Shown: positions 5,948-37,127 of the stretch, one piece after another
How positions within the stretch are numbered: position 1 is the first letter of the stretch
Layout: every line of letters starts with the position of its first letter
From: an uncultured bacterium
GTDB taxonomy: Bacteria > Patescibacteriota > Saccharimonadia > Saccharimonadales > Saccharimonadaceae
Direction: 5' to 3'
DNA: 64,000 nucleotides
NCBI GenBank assembly: GCA_903821365.1
Contig: CAIJKY010000013.1
Coordinates: 1 to 64,000, forward strand
Translations under genes and position numbers: made by a program
Notes under the pieces: model-generated
Seen by the model: the letters and a program-made list of their open reading frames with translations, nothing else
The model's database searches: none
What the model was told of the DNA's origin: nothing

Positions 5948-6029
5948 CTCTATGCGTTTCGTCTTATGCTTGGGCAATACGCCATTGCTGGACTCATCAG
6001 AATAGTTACCTAACTATTGACGCATAGAG
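5948..6029 (-). ncRNA. Type III hammerhead ribozyme A (3' of gene A)
   Basis: Read on the minus strand: stem III CTCTATGCG pairs with CGCATAGAG, the cleavage triplet is GTC, stem I is the closed hairpin AATAGTT/AACTATT, then CTGATGA, stem II starting G-C (GTC/GAC, with an inner GCAAT/AUUGC hairpin), and GAAA. All invariant hammerhead core residues are present. Predicted cleavage is between 6019 and 6018, leaving a 3' end just after the panhandle arm of gene A. Stem III is the longest of the five (9 bp) and its outer CTC overlaps arm a'. Confidence 0.93.
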
Positions 6030-6076
6030 CACTTAGTGACACACCTCTCGGTTCGGAGGGTGCCACTGCAGGAGTA
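6027..6076 (-). promoter_or_regulatory. 3' panhandle arms and hairpin of gene A
   Basis: In transcript order: b' TACTCC (6071-6076), an imperfect hairpin (about 6034-6066) and a' GTGCTC (6027-6032). b' complements GGAGTG and a' complements GAGCAC of the gene A leader. The arm a' leads straight into the ribozyme. Confidence 0.75.
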
Positions 6077-6094
6077 GATTGTGCTATCGCGAGG

Positions 6095-6526
6095 CTAGCG
6101 CGGCAATATTGCTCTGAGTTCGTCCACAGCCGCCTTAAACGCTTCTGTGCTCCCGTTGGTCTCGACAACCACTGGCACTACCTCTAGCGTGCTGTCGATC
6201 AGGTTGATGGGGTCGGCATGGATGATCACGCGCGCCACGTAATGGATCTCGATCGGCTCGTGCGACGCTTCGTCGACACCTTCATAGCCTTCGTAGATAT
6301 AGACCGTCACGTATGCCTCTTCGGGGCCGCCCTGGCCGATCATGAGGCTACTGATTTCCGCGTCGTACTGCTCTTCGTCAACCTTCACTTCCAGCTCTGT
6401 GTCAGTCCGGATTGCGCCCTGCTTGGTGCGCAAGAAACCTCGAGCGAATGTTGCGAACACCAACTCCATGAAGCAGTTGAGAAACAGGTCGTGCTCAACC
6501 TCGATGCGTACCTCGCGAACCGTCAT
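6095..6526 (-). CDS. Cargo protein A, ribozyme-associated paralogue family
   Basis: A 143-residue soluble acidic protein of unknown function. The start is the ATG at 6526, 4 nt after AAGGAG; the upstream ATG at 6544 lies inside the leader element GAGCACAAGGAGTG and is rejected. It shares a pattern with B and C: an N-terminal V-x-I/V-E/D-V/Q segment, a central LEVKVDEEQYDAEISSL-like strand pair (B: LLVSVNSGVYAGSLSYI; C: LVVSVNEVEYTAQIEMI) and a C-terminal Glu/Ala helix. Third positions are GC-rich. It is the last of four tandem modules and is followed by hammerhead A. No family was recognised. Confidence 0.8.
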   Translation of the reverse strand: MTVREVRIEVEHDLFLNCFMELVFATFARGFLRTKQGAIRTDTELEVKVDEEQYDAEISSLMIGQGGPEEAYVTVYIYEGYEGVDEASHEPIEIHYVARVIIHADPINLIDSTLEVVPVVVETNGSTEAFKAAVDELRAILPR

Positions 6527-6528
6527 GT

Positions 6529-6562
6529 CACTCCTTGTGCTCATAGTGGTGAAATTTTCACC
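6529..6562 (-). promoter_or_regulatory. Leader of gene A: hairpin plus panhandle arms
   Basis: In transcript order: hairpin GGTGAAAATTTCACC (6548-6562), arm a GAGCAC (6537-6542), AA, and arm b GGAGTG (6529-6534), which includes the Shine-Dalgarno sequence. Pairing of b with b' after the stop codon would hide the ribosome binding site. Confidence 0.75.
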
Positions 6563-6570
6563 AGAAGTGT

Positions 6571-6599
6571 ATTTTACAATCTTTTTGGATTTTAATCAA
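6571..6599 (-). promoter_or_regulatory. Promoter of gene A
   Basis: TTGATT (6594-6599), a 17-nt spacer and TAAAAT (6571-6576). It begins 1 nt after the end of hammerhead B, so modules are butt-joined. The start near 6564 places the leader hairpin at the 5' end. Confidence 0.75.
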
Positions 6600-6600
6600 C

Positions 6601-6663
6601 ATGCGTTTCGTCCTTTCGCTATGTAGCTGGACTCATCAGAATAACCCTTAGTTATTGACGCAT
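6601..6663 (-). ncRNA. Type III hammerhead ribozyme B (3' of gene B)
   Basis: Minus strand: stem III ATGCG/CGCAT, triplet GTC with cleavage between 6657 and 6656, stem I AATAAC/GTTATT with loop TAAGG, CTGATGA, stem II GTCC/GGAC with an inner GCT/AGC helix, and GAAA. The core is complete. It lies between the gene B hairpin and the gene A promoter. Confidence 0.95.
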
Positions 6664-6664
6664 A

Positions 6665-6713
6665 GAGCACGTGGCGGCAGGCCTTCCGGGTGGAAGGTGC
6701 CGCCGCAGGAGTG
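6665..6713 (-). promoter_or_regulatory. 3' panhandle arms and hairpin of gene B
   Basis: b' CACTCC (6708-6713), a strong hairpin GGCGGCA...TGCCGCC with inner CCTTCC/GGAAGG (6673-6704), and a' GTGCTC (6665-6670). No T-tract follows. The arms match GGAGTG and GAGCAC of the gene B leader exactly. Confidence 0.82.
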
Positions 6714-6733
6714 GGCATGCTAGCCACGCAGTG

Positions 6734-7159
6734 TCATCGCGGCCGCGGTTCGGCCAGAAGCGCGGCGATGGCCGCCTCTTCTTCGTCGGCCGTGCCACCG
6801 TTCGTCAACACGGCGATCTGCTGCAACGGATTGATTCGCTCCGCACCTCCCGGCGTCGTGATGTTGTTGACGAACCGCACCATGTACAGCAGCGGTGTGT
6901 GGTCATGCTCGGTAGCATCGTCCAGCACCTGCAGGGTCGCGCAGGCATCTCGCAGGTTGCCGCCCCGCGTGGTCGATATGTAACTGAGCGAACCTGCATA
7001 CACACCGCTGTTGACAGAGACCAGCAGTTCGGTCTTCGGTTCGGGGCTGTTGCCACCGTTGTCCAGCATCTGGCCAGACAACAAGGCCAACAGGTATTCG
7101 TTGTAGTTGGCCCAGAAGAGGTTTTGCTCCACGAACACCAGCGCACCGCGAATTTCCAT
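6734..7159 (-). CDS. Cargo protein B, ribozyme-associated paralogue family
   Basis: A 141-residue protein without signal or membrane segments. The start is the ATG at 7159, 4 nt after AAGGAG; a GTG upstream (7177) falls in the leader element. It is related to A and C by the N-terminal FVEQNLF...YNEYLLALL pattern (A: EVEHDLF...FMELVFATF), the central LLVSVNSGVYAGSLSYI segment and a C-terminal EEEAAIAALLAE helix. Function is unknown. Strong GC third-position bias. It is transcribed from its own promoter and possibly also by read-through from modules C and D, because no T-tract terminators separate them. Confidence 0.8.
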   Translation of the reverse strand: MEIRGALVFVEQNLFWANYNEYLLALLSGQMLDNGGNSPEPKTELLVSVNSGVYAGSLSYISTTRGGNLRDACATLQVLDDATEHDHTPLLYMVRFVNNITTPGGAERINPLQQIAVLTNGGTADEEEAAIAALLAEPRPR

Positions 7160-7161
7160 GT

Positions 7162-7195
7162 CACTCCTTGTGCTCACAGTGGTGATATCTTCACC
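7162..7195 (-). promoter_or_regulatory. Leader of gene B: hairpin plus panhandle arms
   Basis: Hairpin GGTGAAGATATCACC (7181-7195), arm a GAGCAC (7170-7175), AA, and arm b GGAGTG (7162-7167) containing the Shine-Dalgarno sequence. The hairpin stem is kept (GGTGA/TCACC) while its loop differs from that of A and D. Confidence 0.8.
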
Positions 7196-7203
7196 GAAGA
7201 TAT

Positions 7204-7232
7204 ATTATACAATTTTTCGTATACTTATTCAA
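7204..7232 (-). promoter_or_regulatory. Promoter of gene B
   Basis: TTGAAT (7227-7232), a 17-nt spacer and TATAAT (7204-7209). The -35 box directly abuts stem III of hammerhead C (starts 7233). Confidence 0.82.
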
Positions 7233-7299
7233 CATGTGTTTCGTCCTTGGATGCTAATTGGCAGGACTCATCAGAATAACCTTCAGTTATTGACACATG
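7233..7299 (-). ncRNA. Type III hammerhead ribozyme C (3' of gene C)
   Basis: Minus strand: stem III CATGTG/CACATG, triplet GTC with cleavage between 7292 and 7291, stem I AATAAC/GTTATT with loop TGAAG, CTGATGA, stem II GTCC/GGAC, and GAAA. Stem III differs from the ATGCG/CGCAT of the other copies on both strands at once, which is direct covariation evidence. Confidence 0.95.
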
Positions 7300-7301
7300 C
7301 G

Positions 7302-7350
7302 GCACTTGGTGACGACTCATCGCGGGAGAGTCGTCACCGCAGGAGTGAGC
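7302..7350 (-). promoter_or_regulatory. 3' panhandle arms and hairpin of gene C
   Basis: b' GCTCACTCC (7342-7350), a perfect 11-bp hairpin GGTGACGACTC/GAGTCGTCACC (7308-7338) and a shortened a' GTGC (7302-7305). Here the b/b' helix grows to 9 bp while a/a' shrinks to 4 bp. Confidence 0.78.
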
Positions 7351-7354
7351 GCTG

Positions 7355-7762
7355 TCAAGACAGCTGATCGGGCGAGACATTGTTGAGTTCGGCAACAGCA
7401 AGCCAGAACTCTTCATCAGTATCCCCCTCGAGTGGCGCCAGAACATCGCCCGAAAAAAAGAACGGCTCTGCGTCTTCGTACTGCGTCCTCTTGAGCGAGA
7501 CCAGGCAACACACCGGCGCACTGGTGCGAGCAAGCCGCTCGTCTTTGATCGTCAGCCGCAGGTACACTTCGTTGAGCCTGATCATCTCGATCTGCGCCGT
7601 GTATTCCACCTCGTTGACGCTCACCACCAGCTGCTCTCGCGGGGCGTTCCAGTCCATCGGACTGCCACGCAACCCGAGGACAAACTGCTCCAGCAGATGG
7701 TCGATATAGCGACGATTCATCAGGGCATGATCGACATCAATACGTACAACCATCGTTTCCAC
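7355..7762 (-). CDS. Cargo protein C, ribozyme-associated paralogue family
   Basis: A 135-residue acidic protein. The best start is the GTG at 7762, 5 nt after GAGGAG; an ATG at 7753 is the alternative. It resembles A most closely: VVRIDVDHALMN...IDHLLEQFVLGL against VRIEVEHDLFLN...MELVFATFARGF, then LVVSVNEVEYTAQIEMI and a C-terminal DEEFWLAVAELN. No known domain recognised. Third positions are GC-rich. It is the second module from the upstream end of the tandem array. Confidence 0.78.
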   Translation of the reverse strand: METMVVRIDVDHALMNRRYIDHLLEQFVLGLRGSPMDWNAPREQLVVSVNEVEYTAQIEMIRLNEVYLRLTIKDERLARTSAPVCCLVSLKRTQYEDAEPFFFSGDVLAPLEGDTDEEFWLAVAELNNVSPDQLS

Positions 7763-7800
7763 GCTCACTCCTCAGTGCTCGTTGTAGTGATAGATTCACC
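7763..7800 (-). promoter_or_regulatory. Leader of gene C: hairpin plus panhandle arms
   Basis: Hairpin GGTGAATCTATCACT (7786-7800), arm a GAGCAC (7775-7780, of which GCAC finds a partner), and arm b GGAGTGAGC (7763-7771), exactly complementary to b' at 7342-7350. Confidence 0.75.
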
Positions 7801-7807
7801 AGCTTAT

Positions 7808-7836
7808 ATTATACAATGTTTTCATTCGTTCGACTA
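7808..7836 (-). promoter_or_regulatory. Promoter of gene C, weak -35
   Basis: TATAAT (7808-7813) is perfect. The hexamer at the 17-nt spacing is TAGTCG (7831-7836), a poor -35 that overlaps the end of hammerhead D. Gene C may therefore depend more on read-through from module D. Confidence 0.55.
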
Positions 7837-7890
7837 CGCGTTTCGTCCTGTGAGGACTCATCAGAATAGTTACTAACTATTGACGCATAG
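7834..7890 (-). ncRNA. Type III hammerhead ribozyme D (3' of gene D)
   Basis: Minus strand: stem III CTATGCG/CGCGTAG (one U-G pair), triplet GTC with cleavage between 7882 and 7881, stem I AATAGTT/AACTATT, CTGATGA, a minimal stem II GTCCT/AGGAC with a 3-nt loop, and GAAA. Core complete; with 57 nt it is one of the two most compact copies. Confidence 0.94.
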
Positions 7891-7937
7891 AGCACGTGGC
7901 GGCAGGCCTCCGATGTGGAGGTGCCGCCGCAGGAGTG
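7890..7937 (-). promoter_or_regulatory. 3' panhandle arms and hairpin of gene D
   Basis: b' CACTCC (7932-7937), hairpin GGCGGCA...TGCCGCC with inner CCTCC/GGAGG (7898-7928), and a' GTGCTC (7890-7895). Arms match the gene D leader exactly. Confidence 0.8.
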
Positions 7938-7942
7938 GGCCA

Positions 7943-8392
7943 TCAGCTGGCCGCTTTGCGGAGAAGCCTGAGATTCTCGACTTCGGTGTCCAGCAGGTCG
8001 TCCTCCAGCACGGCGATCGCCGATGTGCACCGCCAAGAAGCGATCCTTCGATCACCGCCCAGCGAGTACGCCTCTGGAACAACACGGGCCAGGAACCTCA
8101 GCGGCTCATCGGCGCTCAAGAGGTTATCCCTGTGATTTACGAGCAGGATGATCTCTTCGAATCCAACTCTGGTGCTGTGTTTGGCTTTGATGATGCGGGC
8201 ACCGTAAGTGCCGAGGTGTGCGCCGTTGTGGACACGCAACCCAACATCATGGATTGGCTCGAGCACGTTGACATCGTTCTCGCCGTCTGCGCGACGCGCG
8301 GTCAAGCGCAACTTTGCGAGGTCCATGTAGGTCGTCAAGTGCGCCTCAAGCGTTACATCGTCAACGCCCACCATGGCGCGGTTGATGGCCAT
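7943..8392 (-). CDS. Cargo protein D, ribozyme-associated
   Basis: A 149-residue soluble protein of unknown function. The start is the ATG at 8392 with AAGGAG 8 nt upstream; in-frame ATGs further up lie in the leader or before the promoter. It is more divergent than A-C but keeps the general plan: an N-terminal helix region, a central VGLRVHNGAHLGTYGARI strand pair and an acidic C-terminal helix (LDTEVENLRLL). GC-rich third positions. It is the first gene of the tandem array and has the best-separated promoter. Confidence 0.78.
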   Translation of the reverse strand: MAINRAMVGVDDVTLEAHLTTYMDLAKLRLTARRADGENDVNVLEPIHDVGLRVHNGAHLGTYGARIIKAKHSTRVGFEEIILLVNHRDNLLSADEPLRFLARVVPEAYSLGGDRRIASWRCTSAIAVLEDDLLDTEVENLRLLRKAAS

Positions 8393-8397
8393 ATTTT

Positions 8398-8431
8398 CAC
8401 TCCTTGTGCTCATGTACAGGTGAATTTCACC
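8398..8431 (-). promoter_or_regulatory. Leader of gene D: hairpin plus panhandle arms
   Basis: Hairpin GGTGAAATTCACC (8419-8431), arm a GAGCAC (8406-8411), AA, and arm b GGAGTG (8398-8403) with the Shine-Dalgarno sequence. Confidence 0.8.
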
Positions 8432-8440
8432 CATAAATAT

Positions 8441-8469
8441 ATTATAGCACAAAATTTAAAATAAATCAA
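8441..8469 (-). promoter_or_regulatory. Promoter of gene D
   Basis: TTGATT (8464-8469), a 17-nt spacer and TATAAT (8441-8446), in an AT-rich region downstream of the small membrane gene at 8587. Confidence 0.82.
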
Positions 8470-36419: not shown

Positions 36420-36437
36420 GGGTAAGTTTTACCTACA

Positions 36438-36470
36438 AAAAGACGCGCTCAACGTAGCGCGTCTTTTTTG
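36438..36470. terminator. Bidirectional terminator between glsB-like gene and ribozyme E
   Basis: AAAAAGACGCGCT and AGCGCGTCTTTTTT form a 12-bp or longer stem with A-run and T-run, able to terminate both strands. It lies just behind hammerhead E on the minus strand. Confidence 0.88.
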
Positions 36471-36471
36471 T

Positions 36472-36523
36472 TGCGTTTCGTCTCTCACAAGACTCATCAG
36501 AATACCTATATGATATTGACGCA
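36472..36523 (-). ncRNA. Type III hammerhead ribozyme E (3' of gene E)
   Basis: Minus strand: stem III TGCG/CGCA, GTC with cleavage between 36518 and 36517, stem I AATATC/GGTATT with loop ATATA (one U-G pair), CTGATGA, stem II GTCT/AGAC, and GAAA. Stem I and stem II differ from copies A-D on both strands while pairing is kept. At 52 nt this is the shortest copy, 28 kb from the others. Confidence 0.94.
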
Positions 36524-36524
36524 T

Positions 36525-36572
36525 GAGCACGTGGTAGAGGCCGGTTGGCCGTTGCCTCTACCGTTCAGGGTA
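36525..36572 (-). promoter_or_regulatory. 3' panhandle arms and hairpin of gene E
   Basis: b' TACCCT (36567-36572), hairpin GGTAGAGGC/GCCTCTACC (36533-36562) and a' GTGCTC (36525-36530). b' changed together with its partner: the leader has GGGGTA instead of GGAGTG. Confidence 0.82.
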
Positions 36573-36590
36573 TGTGCCTCAGGCACATTG

Positions 36591-37055
36591 TCAGGCGCGC
36601 AGCCACTCGATGGCCTGGTTGACGCCAGCATCGGTCGCTGGCACGCGACAGACACGCTGTGGGATGATCCAGTCTTCGGCGTCGAGCTGGGTCGATTCCC
36701 GTGGACGGATGATCATCACATCGTAGGCGACAATGTCGCCCGCTTCATCCCGGATGTCCACCGCCACGATGATTTCTGTGGTGCAGAAGCCGATCGTGGA
36801 GACGCCGAGAACGCGCGCCGGGTGAATGGTGCTGGTTGGCGCGGTGTAATCCGGTGCGTCACCGACGCCGTACTCTTGATCACCGACCCTCAGATGCACG
36901 ATGAAGTCACCTGCGAGGCGCGGGTCGTACTCGTCCGACTCGGTAAAAGTGGAGTAGCGACGTGCGTGAGACTTCAACACAGGCCGCAGCTGCGCGCCTT
37001 CGGCCAGCTCGATGCTGACCTGACGCTCGTCGGGCTGCGGTTGCAAGTCGATCAT
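36591..37055 (-). CDS. Cargo protein E, ribozyme-associated
   Basis: A 154-residue soluble protein of unknown function. The start is the ATG 37055 after AAAGGGG. It is only distantly like A-D: FIVHLRVGDQEYGVGDA may match the central V-x-V-x-x-x-x-Y strand pair of A-C, and the C-terminal ends in a helix (AGVNQAIEWLRA). GC-rich codons. Same leader, trailer and ribozyme layout as A-D, but single-copy, between a terminator and tRNA-Pro, a location typical of insertions. Confidence 0.78.
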   Translation of the reverse strand: MIDLQPQPDERQVSIELAEGAQLRPVLKSHARRYSTFTESDEYDPRLAGDFIVHLRVGDQEYGVGDAPDYTAPTSTIHPARVLGVSTIGFCTTEIIVAVDIRDEAGDIVAYDVMIIRPRESTQLDAEDWIIPQRVCRVPATDAGVNQAIEWLRA

Positions 37056-37058
37056 ATT

Positions 37059-37090
37059 TACCCCTTTGTGCTCGGTTGGTGCGGGTGCAC
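37059..37090 (-). promoter_or_regulatory. Leader of gene E: hairpin plus panhandle arms
   Basis: Hairpin GTGC-ACCC-GCAC (37079-37090) replaces the GGTGA/TCACC hairpin of A-D; arm a GAGCAC (37068-37073) is kept; arm b GGGGTA (37059-37064) contains the Shine-Dalgarno sequence and complements TACCCT after the stop (one G-U pair). Confidence 0.8.
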
Positions 37091-37098
37091 TCTTGTAT

Positions 37099-37127
37099 AT
37101 TTAACAATTTTTGCTGAATATTGTCAA
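37099..37127 (-). promoter_or_regulatory. Promoter of gene E
   Basis: TTGACA (37122-37127), a 17-nt spacer and TTAAAT (37099-37104). Confidence 0.75.

What the first reader, a model, noticed from the sequence alone, without database searches (positions are those of the whole stretch)
5948..8469. Four tandem small genes, each closed by its own hammerhead ribozyme
Seen: four type III hammerheads (5948-6029, 6601-6663, 7233-7299, 7834-7890) on the minus strand, each directly after a small GC-rich gene and butt-joined to the next promoter. All keep CTGATGA, GAAA, GTC and a closed stem I; stems I, II and III vary with pairing kept (for example CATGTG/CACATG in C against ATGCG/CGCAT in B). Known: type III hammerheads occur in bacteria and in circular satellite-type RNAs. 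Inferred: a gene-ribozyme module that was duplicated. A ribozyme as the standard 3' end of a family of protein-coding genes in such a genome is, to my knowledge, not described.
Basis: partly seen in the sequence, partly recalled or inferred. Interest (0 to 1): 0.96.

Follow-up and report, generated by a model that had tools for sequence, protein, structure and literature searches.

The report
Ribozyme-ended, self-closing bacterial mRNA modules
In a bacterium with a tiny genome (inferred to be a Saccharibacterium), small unrelated genes each carry a self-cutting RNA (hammerhead ribozyme) just after their end, next to a stretch that pairs with the start of the same message, which suggests a previously unrecognised way of making and closing bacterial mRNAs.

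Summary
Four type III hammerheads lie on the minus strand at 5950-6027, 6599-6665, 7232-7300 and 7834-7890. A fifth complete module was missed at 36469-37127, and the genome has eight hammerheads. The order is inferred to be Saccharimonadales (Candidatus Saccharibacteria). A model built from relatives finds such ribozymes in 96 of 393 genomes of the order, up to 14 per genome.

They are 3'-UTR elements: about 95 nt after the stop codon of small, mostly unrelated orphan genes.

The new point is a second half at the 5' end. A promoter and a short hairpin are followed by a strand complementary to the 3' UTR segment that ends 7-10 nt before the ribozyme cut. 56 of 147 modules show it, against 1 of 147 in a mirror control, with 49 different sequences. 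In the window array this helix covers the Shine-Dalgarno sequence. Many relatives have a longer covarying leader whose Shine-Dalgarno side weakly matches Rfam RAGATH-10.

Best reading: the ribozyme makes the 3' end of a monocistronic mRNA whose trimmed 3' UTR pairs with its own leader, closing the message and gating translation or stability. Cleavage and regulation are inferred, not shown.

The parts
7943..8392 (-). gene D (149 aa orphan; ATG 8392)
   Evidence: ORF with SD AAGGAGTG; no Pfam
7355..7762 (-). gene C (about 135 aa orphan; GTG 7762, ORF open from 7768)
   Evidence: ORF, SD GAGGAGTG; no Pfam
6734..7159 (-). gene B (141 aa orphan)
   Evidence: homologous to gene A, E 4e-8
6095..6526 (-). 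gene A (143 aa orphan)
7834..7890 (-). hammerhead D, type III; cut between 7882 and 7881
   Evidence: RF00008 48.2 bits; R1 E 3.1e-18
7232..7300 (-). hammerhead C, type III; cut between 7292 and 7291
   Evidence: RF00008 41.9 bits; R1 E 4.1e-17
6599..6665 (-). hammerhead B, type III; cut between 6657 and 6656
   Evidence: RF00008 40.9 bits; R1 E 8e-17
5950..6027 (-). hammerhead A, type III; cut between 6019 and 6018; stem III can extend to 10 bp into the 3' closing strand
   Evidence: RF00008 41.5 bits; R1 E 2.7e-17
8441..8469 (-). promoter D (TTGATT-17-TATAAT)
   Evidence: sequence
7808..7813 (-). -10 box of promoter C (TATAAT; -35 weak)
7204..7232 (-). promoter B (TTGAAT-17-TATAAT), abutting hammerhead C
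6571..6599 (-). promoter A (TTGATT-17-TAAAAT), abutting hammerhead B
8419..8432 (-). 5' hairpin P1 of unit D (GGGTGAAATTCACC); same element in C 7786-7800, B 7181-7195, A 6548-6562
   Evidence: differs in sequence between units, stays a hairpin
8398..8411 (-). 5' closing strands of unit D (GAGCAC and AGGAGTG, the latter holding the SD); C 7761-7778, B 7162-7175, A 6530-6542
   Evidence: predicted pair probability 0.73-1.0 in the cleaved mRNAs of A-D
7890..7937 (-). 3' closing strands of unit D (CACTCCT 7931-7937, GTGCTC 7890-7895) around the GC-rich hairpin P3 (7898-7928)
7302..7352 (-). 3' closing strands of unit C (GCGCTCACTCCT 7341-7352, AGTGC 7302-7306) around P3 (7308-7338)
6665..6713 (-). 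3' closing strands of unit B (CACTCCT 6707-6713, GTGCTC 6665-6670) around P3 (6673-6704)
6027..6075 (-). 3' closing strands of unit A (ACTCCT 6070-6075, GTGCTC 6027-6032) around P3 (6035-6067)
36591..37055 (-). gene E of a fifth, separate module (154 aa orphan); promoter 37099-37127, P1 37079-37090, 5' strand 37068-37073, P3 36533-36562, 3' strand 36525-36530
   Evidence: GAGCAC/GTGCTC pair probability 1.0
36469..36526 (-). hammerhead E; cut between 36518 and 36517
   Evidence: RF00008 34.2 bits; R1 E 2.3e-13

Best explanation
Each unit is a monocistronic mRNA module. RNA polymerase starts at the unit's own promoter; the RNA begins with a small hairpin, then a 5' strand that contains or lies near the Shine-Dalgarno sequence, then the gene, a GC-rich hairpin, a 3' strand complementary to the 5' strand, and a type III hammerhead. 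The hammerhead cuts itself and so makes a defined 3' end (2',3'-cyclic phosphate) 7-10 nt beyond the 3' strand, in place of an intrinsic terminator. The trimmed 3' UTR then pairs with the leader of the same RNA, closing the message. In the window array this hides the Shine-Dalgarno sequence, so the likely effect is to limit new rounds of translation once the message is complete, and to protect both ends or tune decay. Shown here: the ribozyme motif, its 3'-UTR position, promoter-like sites, and 5'/3' complementarity kept in different sequences. Inferred: cleavage in the cell, formation of the closed form, and its effect on translation or stability.
For: Hammerheads. Position: upstream gene on the same strand in 93 of 117 (naive gene calls), downstream gene 65 same to 51 opposite, stop-to-ribozyme median 95 nt. 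Few intrinsic terminators before (13/135) or after (16/135) the ribozyme. 5'/3' complementarity: 43/119 in the order reach score 27 against 1/119 (mirror), 10 (antisense), 8 (downstream), Mann-Whitney p 5e-16 against mirror; 56/147 against 1/147 with Watson-Crick scoring, 49 distinct sequences, 50 of 56 ending 7-10 nt before the cut. Test selected on the 3' side only: 16 of 20 loci have TGACAAGC upstream, controls 1 and 2. Array-type units: each unit pairs with its own partner at least as well as with any other, except E, whose score is exceeded by two foreign 3' ends; C5 replaces GAGCAC/GTGCTC by GTGACGCT/AGCGTCAC. Probable orthologues L085 and L072 differ by compensated changes. Predicted pair probability 0.73-1.0 for units A-D. 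Promoter-like sites upstream of the 5' strand in 41/52 (20 shuffled, 9 control region), predicted start to strand about 34 nt.
Against: No cleavage or transcript data. Only about 40% of modules show a clear contiguous helix with my search; the rest may have bipartite or weaker pairing, or none. G-U against A-C mismatches in the helices are 4 to 6, so they do not by themselves distinguish RNA pairing from a DNA inverted repeat. The Shine-Dalgarno sequence is inside the helix only in part of the modules; in the long-leader type it lies about 100 nt further on. Hammerhead clusters in other classes (G535, G576) show no such helix with this test. Secondary-structure folding gives hammerheads B and E poor stem II probability in the full precursor.
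Confidence: 0.6

Rival explanations
1. The hammerheads only cut long read-through RNAs into single-gene mRNAs, as proposed for clustered hammerheads in prophages; the 5'/3' complementarity is secondary.
For: Tandem arrays here and in G272, G328, G178, G087; few terminators around the ribozymes; published precedent (PMC3088659).
Against: Units have their own promoter-like sites; most modules are single; the strand of the downstream gene is near random; it does not explain the conserved partner strand next to the cut.
Confidence: 0.15
2. The RNA is circularised: the helix brings the ends together and the 2',3'-cyclic phosphate end is joined to a processed 5' end, by a ligase such as RtcB or by ribozyme reversal in tandem units.
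For: 5' and 3' ends are brought within a few tens of nt; hammerheads are typical of circular RNAs; two of the three inner array units could re-form a hammerhead from the two neighbours' halves by stem III pairing (D with C five pairs with two wobbles, B with A six; read from the sequences).
Against: Most modules have one ribozyme, so the 5' end should carry a triphosphate; stem III of C and B do not match; no second self-cleaving motif was recognised in the leaders that were scanned at permissive E-values.
Confidence: 0.1
3. The complementary arms are DNA inverted repeats of a mobile gene cassette, with the ribozyme as passenger.
For: Cargo genes are mostly unrelated orphans; arms look like inverted repeats; mismatch types do not favour RNA.
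Against: Promoter and 5' hairpin lie outside one arm and the ribozyme outside the other; arm position is fixed relative to the cut and the predicted transcription start; arms differ between modules; in the array the arms are bipartite around a hairpin and include the Shine-Dalgarno sequence.
Confidence: 0.1
4. Chance or decayed motifs without function.
For: All four window elements are under Rfam's gathering score.
Against: Conservation and covariation over the order and other classes, fixed 3'-UTR position, shared loop sequences GTGT/GCGT with AAAA.
Confidence: 0.02

Closest known systems
Type III hammerhead ribozyme (Rfam RF00008)
   Same: Core, NUH cut site, closed stems I and II, open stem III.
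   Different: Used as a regular 3'-UTR element of chromosomal genes in Saccharibacteria; many with short stem II (GUCC-AAAA-GGAC) and scores under Rfam's threshold.
Clustered hammerheads flanking single genes in bacterial prophages (Perreault et al. 2011, PMC3088659)
   Same: Several hammerheads near single genes, gene identity not constant.
   Different: Here no phage genes were seen around the array, one module pattern has no match in 2.9 million viral contigs, and units have a promoter and a 5' partner strand.
RAGATH-10 RNA (Rfam RF03147)
   Same: The Shine-Dalgarno side of the long leader matches it weakly but repeatedly (up to 33.5 bits); the name means an RNA associated with genes associated with twister and hammerhead ribozymes (from memory; the source paper is not held).
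   Different: RAGATH-10 covers only part of the leader; the helix to the 3' UTR and the hammerhead are not part of it.
icaR 5'-3' UTR pairing in Staphylococcus aureus (PMC3868564)
   Same: A 3' UTR motif pairs with the Shine-Dalgarno region of the same mRNA.
   Different: One gene, no ribozyme; here many unrelated genes and a defined place beside a hammerhead.
Hammerhead in the 3' UTR of mammalian Clec2 genes (PMC6155905)
   Same: Type III hammerhead in a 3' UTR of a protein-coding gene.
   Different: Discontinuous with a huge helix I, one gene family in mammals.
Viroid-like circular RNAs, Obelisks and retrozymes
   Same: Hammerheads and compact self-pairing RNAs.
   Different: DNA-encoded chromosomal genes with promoters; usually one hammerhead; no evidence of circles.

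Membership tests
Type III hammerhead ribozyme | CUGANGA, GAAA and NUH at the cut, in the right order | tested here: met
Type III hammerhead ribozyme | Three helices with stem III open, compensatory changes | tested here: met
   16 of 18 pairs with two-sided changes over 43 elements (sampling required at least 3 pairs per stem, so partly by construction)
Type III hammerhead ribozyme | Score above Rfam gathering threshold | tested here: inconclusive
   40.9-48.2 bits against 48.5; two relatives pass
Type III hammerhead ribozyme | Self-cleavage after NUH | not testable with these tools
   needs in vitro transcription
Prophage-type clustered hammerheads | Hammerheads flank single genes | tested here: met
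Prophage-type clustered hammerheads | Phage or prophage context | tested here: not met
   flanking genes are a two-component system, glyoxalase, GDSL lipase, NUDIX, hydrolase; one module pattern (CTGCTTGTCA variant) has 0 matches in viral contigs; a few cargo proteins of relatives have PHROG matches
RAGATH-10 | Match to the family model | tested here: inconclusive
   18.8-33.5 bits against 41.2; six of eight weak matches in 16 genomes lie in the leader of a hammerhead module; none in G000
icaR-type 5'-3' UTR control | 3' UTR complementary to own Shine-Dalgarno region | tested here: met
   window array
icaR-type 5'-3' UTR control | Pairing lowers translation and recruits RNase III | not testable with these tools
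   needs reporter and decay assays
Viroid-like or retrozyme circular RNA | Unit bounded by ribozymes that can re-form for ligation | tested here: inconclusive
   stem III strands of neighbours match in two of three array units; most modules have one ribozyme

The most novel reading that the evidence does not exclude
A bacterial lineage uses a portable two-ended RNA chassis on dozens of unrelated genes: a ribozyme, not a terminator, makes the mRNA 3' end, and the cut message closes on itself by 5'/3' pairing, in the long type with a switchable leader (RAGATH-10-like), giving an mRNA type not known from other bacteria.
Probability: 0.4. Interest if true: 0.93.

Novelty: new variant of a known kind. 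Interest (0 to 1): 0.86.

Why it matters
The role of hammerheads in bacteria is an open question. Here they have a fixed place, a partner element at the other end of the same mRNA, and a wide spread in one lineage, which makes the question directly testable. If confirmed it adds ribozyme-made 3' ends and closed-loop mRNAs to bacterial gene expression, and gives the RAGATH-10 motif a context.

Tried and rejected
Protein function: no Pfam match for genes A-E; an AlphaFold model of gene A had pLDDT 63.5 and no structural match at E <= 0.001 in PDB or the viral library (the best viral matches include ssRNA phage coat proteins at E 0.036 with TM 0.3, not significant). Free duplex energy between leader and 3' UTR was too loose: long gapped duplexes, own leader never best, though the mean was better than non-cognate in all 10,000 permutations; replaced by anchored contiguous tests. 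Empty-site test in the nearest genus relative failed for lack of synteny. G-U against A-C asymmetry gave no signal. RAGATH-10 in 61 relatives: none at E <= 0.1 with strict filters, then weak matches in six of 16 genomes, mostly chosen because they carry modules. Literature searches for hammerhead or self-cleaving ribozymes in CPR, Patescibacteria or Saccharibacteria returned no paper in the held library.
Full report
OBSERVATION. The four elements are real. A default Rfam scan shows none, because all score just under the gathering threshold; with E-values listed, the four are the best matches in the region, RF00008 Hammerhead_3, 40.9-48.2 bits, full length, minus strand. The genome (G000, 1.03 Mb, 17 contigs) holds eight hammerheads by a model built from relatives and these copies, E 3e-18 to 2e-13: the four, a fifth in the window (36469-36526), and one each on C1, C5 and C8.

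WHERE THEY OCCUR. RF00008 matches 35 of 101 relatives at E <= 1. The model R1 (43 elements, 18 pairs, 16 with two-sided changes; note that my descriptor demanded at least three pairs per stem) matches 96 of 393 genomes of the order at E <= 0.01, up to 14 per genome, and 47 of 380 genomes sampled across the phylum at E <= 1e-4, 39 of them outside the order. A DNA pattern for one variant of the 3' half (CTGCTTGTCA, gap, CTGATGAGTCC) in named genomes gave 19 stretches: 17 in records called Candidatus Saccharibacteria or Saccharimonadia, one in a 6.9 kb contig of a Bacteroidales bin and one in an unnamed bacterium. The same pattern has no match in viral contigs. So the order is taken to be Saccharimonadales; G000 itself is unnamed and this is an inference.

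ANATOMY. In 118 distinct elements the upstream gene is on the same strand in 93 of 117, while the downstream gene is 65 to 51; the stop codon lies a median 95 nt before the ribozyme (IQR 67-124) and the gene has a median 153 codons. Intrinsic terminators are rare before (13/135) and after (16/135) the ribozyme. The genes are mostly unrelated to each other; 82 of them give matches to only 12 Pfam families, nearly all with one member. So this is a 3'-UTR element shared by unlike genes.

THE SECOND HALF. Folding units C and B of the array closes their ends: leader GAGCAC plus AGGAGTG (with the Shine-Dalgarno sequence) pairs with CACTCCT plus GTGCTC in the 3' UTR, around a GC-rich hairpin, next to the ribozyme (unit C has its own variant of both strands). 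Pair probabilities for the cleaved mRNAs of A to D are 0.73-1.0, and 1.0 for GAGCAC/GTGCTC of E. Differences between units are mostly compensated: C has AGGAGTGAGCGT with GCGCTCACTCCT; the C5 unit has GTGACGCT with AGCGTCAC; the G058 unit has AGAAAAGA with TCTTTTCT. In an eight by eight comparison each unit's own 3' end is the best or tied for best, except for unit E, whose 29.5 is exceeded by A (31.5) and G058 (30.5) and tied by D, B and G047; shuffled 3' ends reach the observed value in 0-2 of 300 for the G000 units, and 23-24 of 300 for G047 and G058.

GENERALITY. For each hammerhead I asked whether the segment just before stem III has a contiguous complement upstream. In the order 43 of 119 reach score 27, against 1 (mirror-reversed segment), 10 (antisense region) and 8 (downstream region); p 5e-16 against mirror. 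The last two controls can be inflated by neighbouring modules. With Watson-Crick scoring 56 of 147 pass against 1 of 147, with 49 different sequences, and 50 of the 56 end 7-10 nt before the cut. Examples: TGACAAGCAGACA/TGTCTGCTTGTCA, TGACAATCCGTTC/GAACGGATTGTCA, GCAACAAACCG/CGGTTTGTTGC, and outside the order TAGCGTGTGGTGA/TCACCACACGCTA. The probable orthologues L085 and L072 carry TGACAATCCGTTC and TGACAACTCGTTT with matching 3' strands. A test chosen on the 3' side only, in the named contigs: 16 of 20 have TGACAAGC 487-1201 nt upstream, against 1 downstream and 2 antisense; some of these loci are the same genomes as in the first set. Promoter-like sites lie upstream of the 5' strand in 41 of 52, predicted start about 34 nt before it.

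LONG LEADERS. Many modules have a leader of about 140 nt: hairpin P1 (TTGTTGAG...CTCC), the 5' strand, a long hairpin P4 (CACAAGGTGAG...CCTCATCTTGTG), further hairpins, then the Shine-Dalgarno sequence. Over 25 of them, P1 and P4 have two-sided changes in 18 of 20 pairs, reached in 0 of 500 shuffles. The 3' part matches Rfam RAGATH-10 weakly; of eight weak matches in 16 genomes, six have a module hammerhead downstream on the same strand. In the RAGATH-10 fold the P4 3' strand pairs with the Shine-Dalgarno side, so P4 and that helix exclude each other: a possible switch. In some of them the 3' closing strand can also pair locally (TGGCAAGTGGACATTGG/CCAATGTCTGCTTGTCA). These are readings of sequence, not measured states.

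MECHANISM. Best reading, about 0.6: ribozyme-made 3' end plus closure of the message by 5'/3' pairing, gating translation or stability. The icaR mRNA shows that a 3' UTR can block its own Shine-Dalgarno region (PMC3868564). In unit A the ribozyme's stem III can extend into the closing strand; the outer closing pair falls from 0.98 in the cleaved to 0.38 in the uncleaved model, which would couple closing to cutting. Rivals are processing of read-through RNA, circularisation, and a DNA cassette with inverted repeats; none is excluded.

NOVELTY. Parts are known: hammerheads, their presence near single genes in prophages (PMC3088659), a 3'-UTR hammerhead in mammals (PMC6155905), 5'/3' UTR pairing, RAGATH-10. 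Their combination into one module on many unrelated chromosomal genes of Saccharibacteria was not found in the papers I could search; the library lacks most subscription papers, so this is not proof of absence.

Noticed in passing
G178 (L189, L195), G051 (L190), G371 (L191), G168 (L192), G068 (L194): Weak matches to RAGATH-10 (RF03147) fall in the leaders of hammerhead modules, which suggests that this orphan Rfam motif is the Shine-Dalgarno half of the long leader.
   Followed up: partly
L148 (G535 C16) and L149 (G576 C32), outside the order: Tandem hammerheads (five in about 3 kb in G535) for which my test found no 5' partner strand; possibly a different use of the ribozyme.
   Followed up: partly
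L163, Bacteroidales bin Horse_feces62, 6.9 kb contig: Carries the Saccharibacteria-type 3' half; perhaps a misbinned contig.
   Followed up: no
cargo set A4 (82 proteins of hammerhead modules): Two cargo proteins match Pfam Tad4 (Thoeris inhibitor, best E 6.5e-24); others match NUDIX, RpoA C-terminal domain, Band 7, glycosyltransferase 2, DUF350, DUF4419.
   Followed up: no
L083 and L086 (G272, G328): A subfamily with leader TGTAAGGAGA paired to TCTCCTTACA beside the ribozyme, again with the Shine-Dalgarno sequence inside the helix.
   Followed up: partly
window 36437-36463: Intrinsic terminator directly after hammerhead E.
   Followed up: yes
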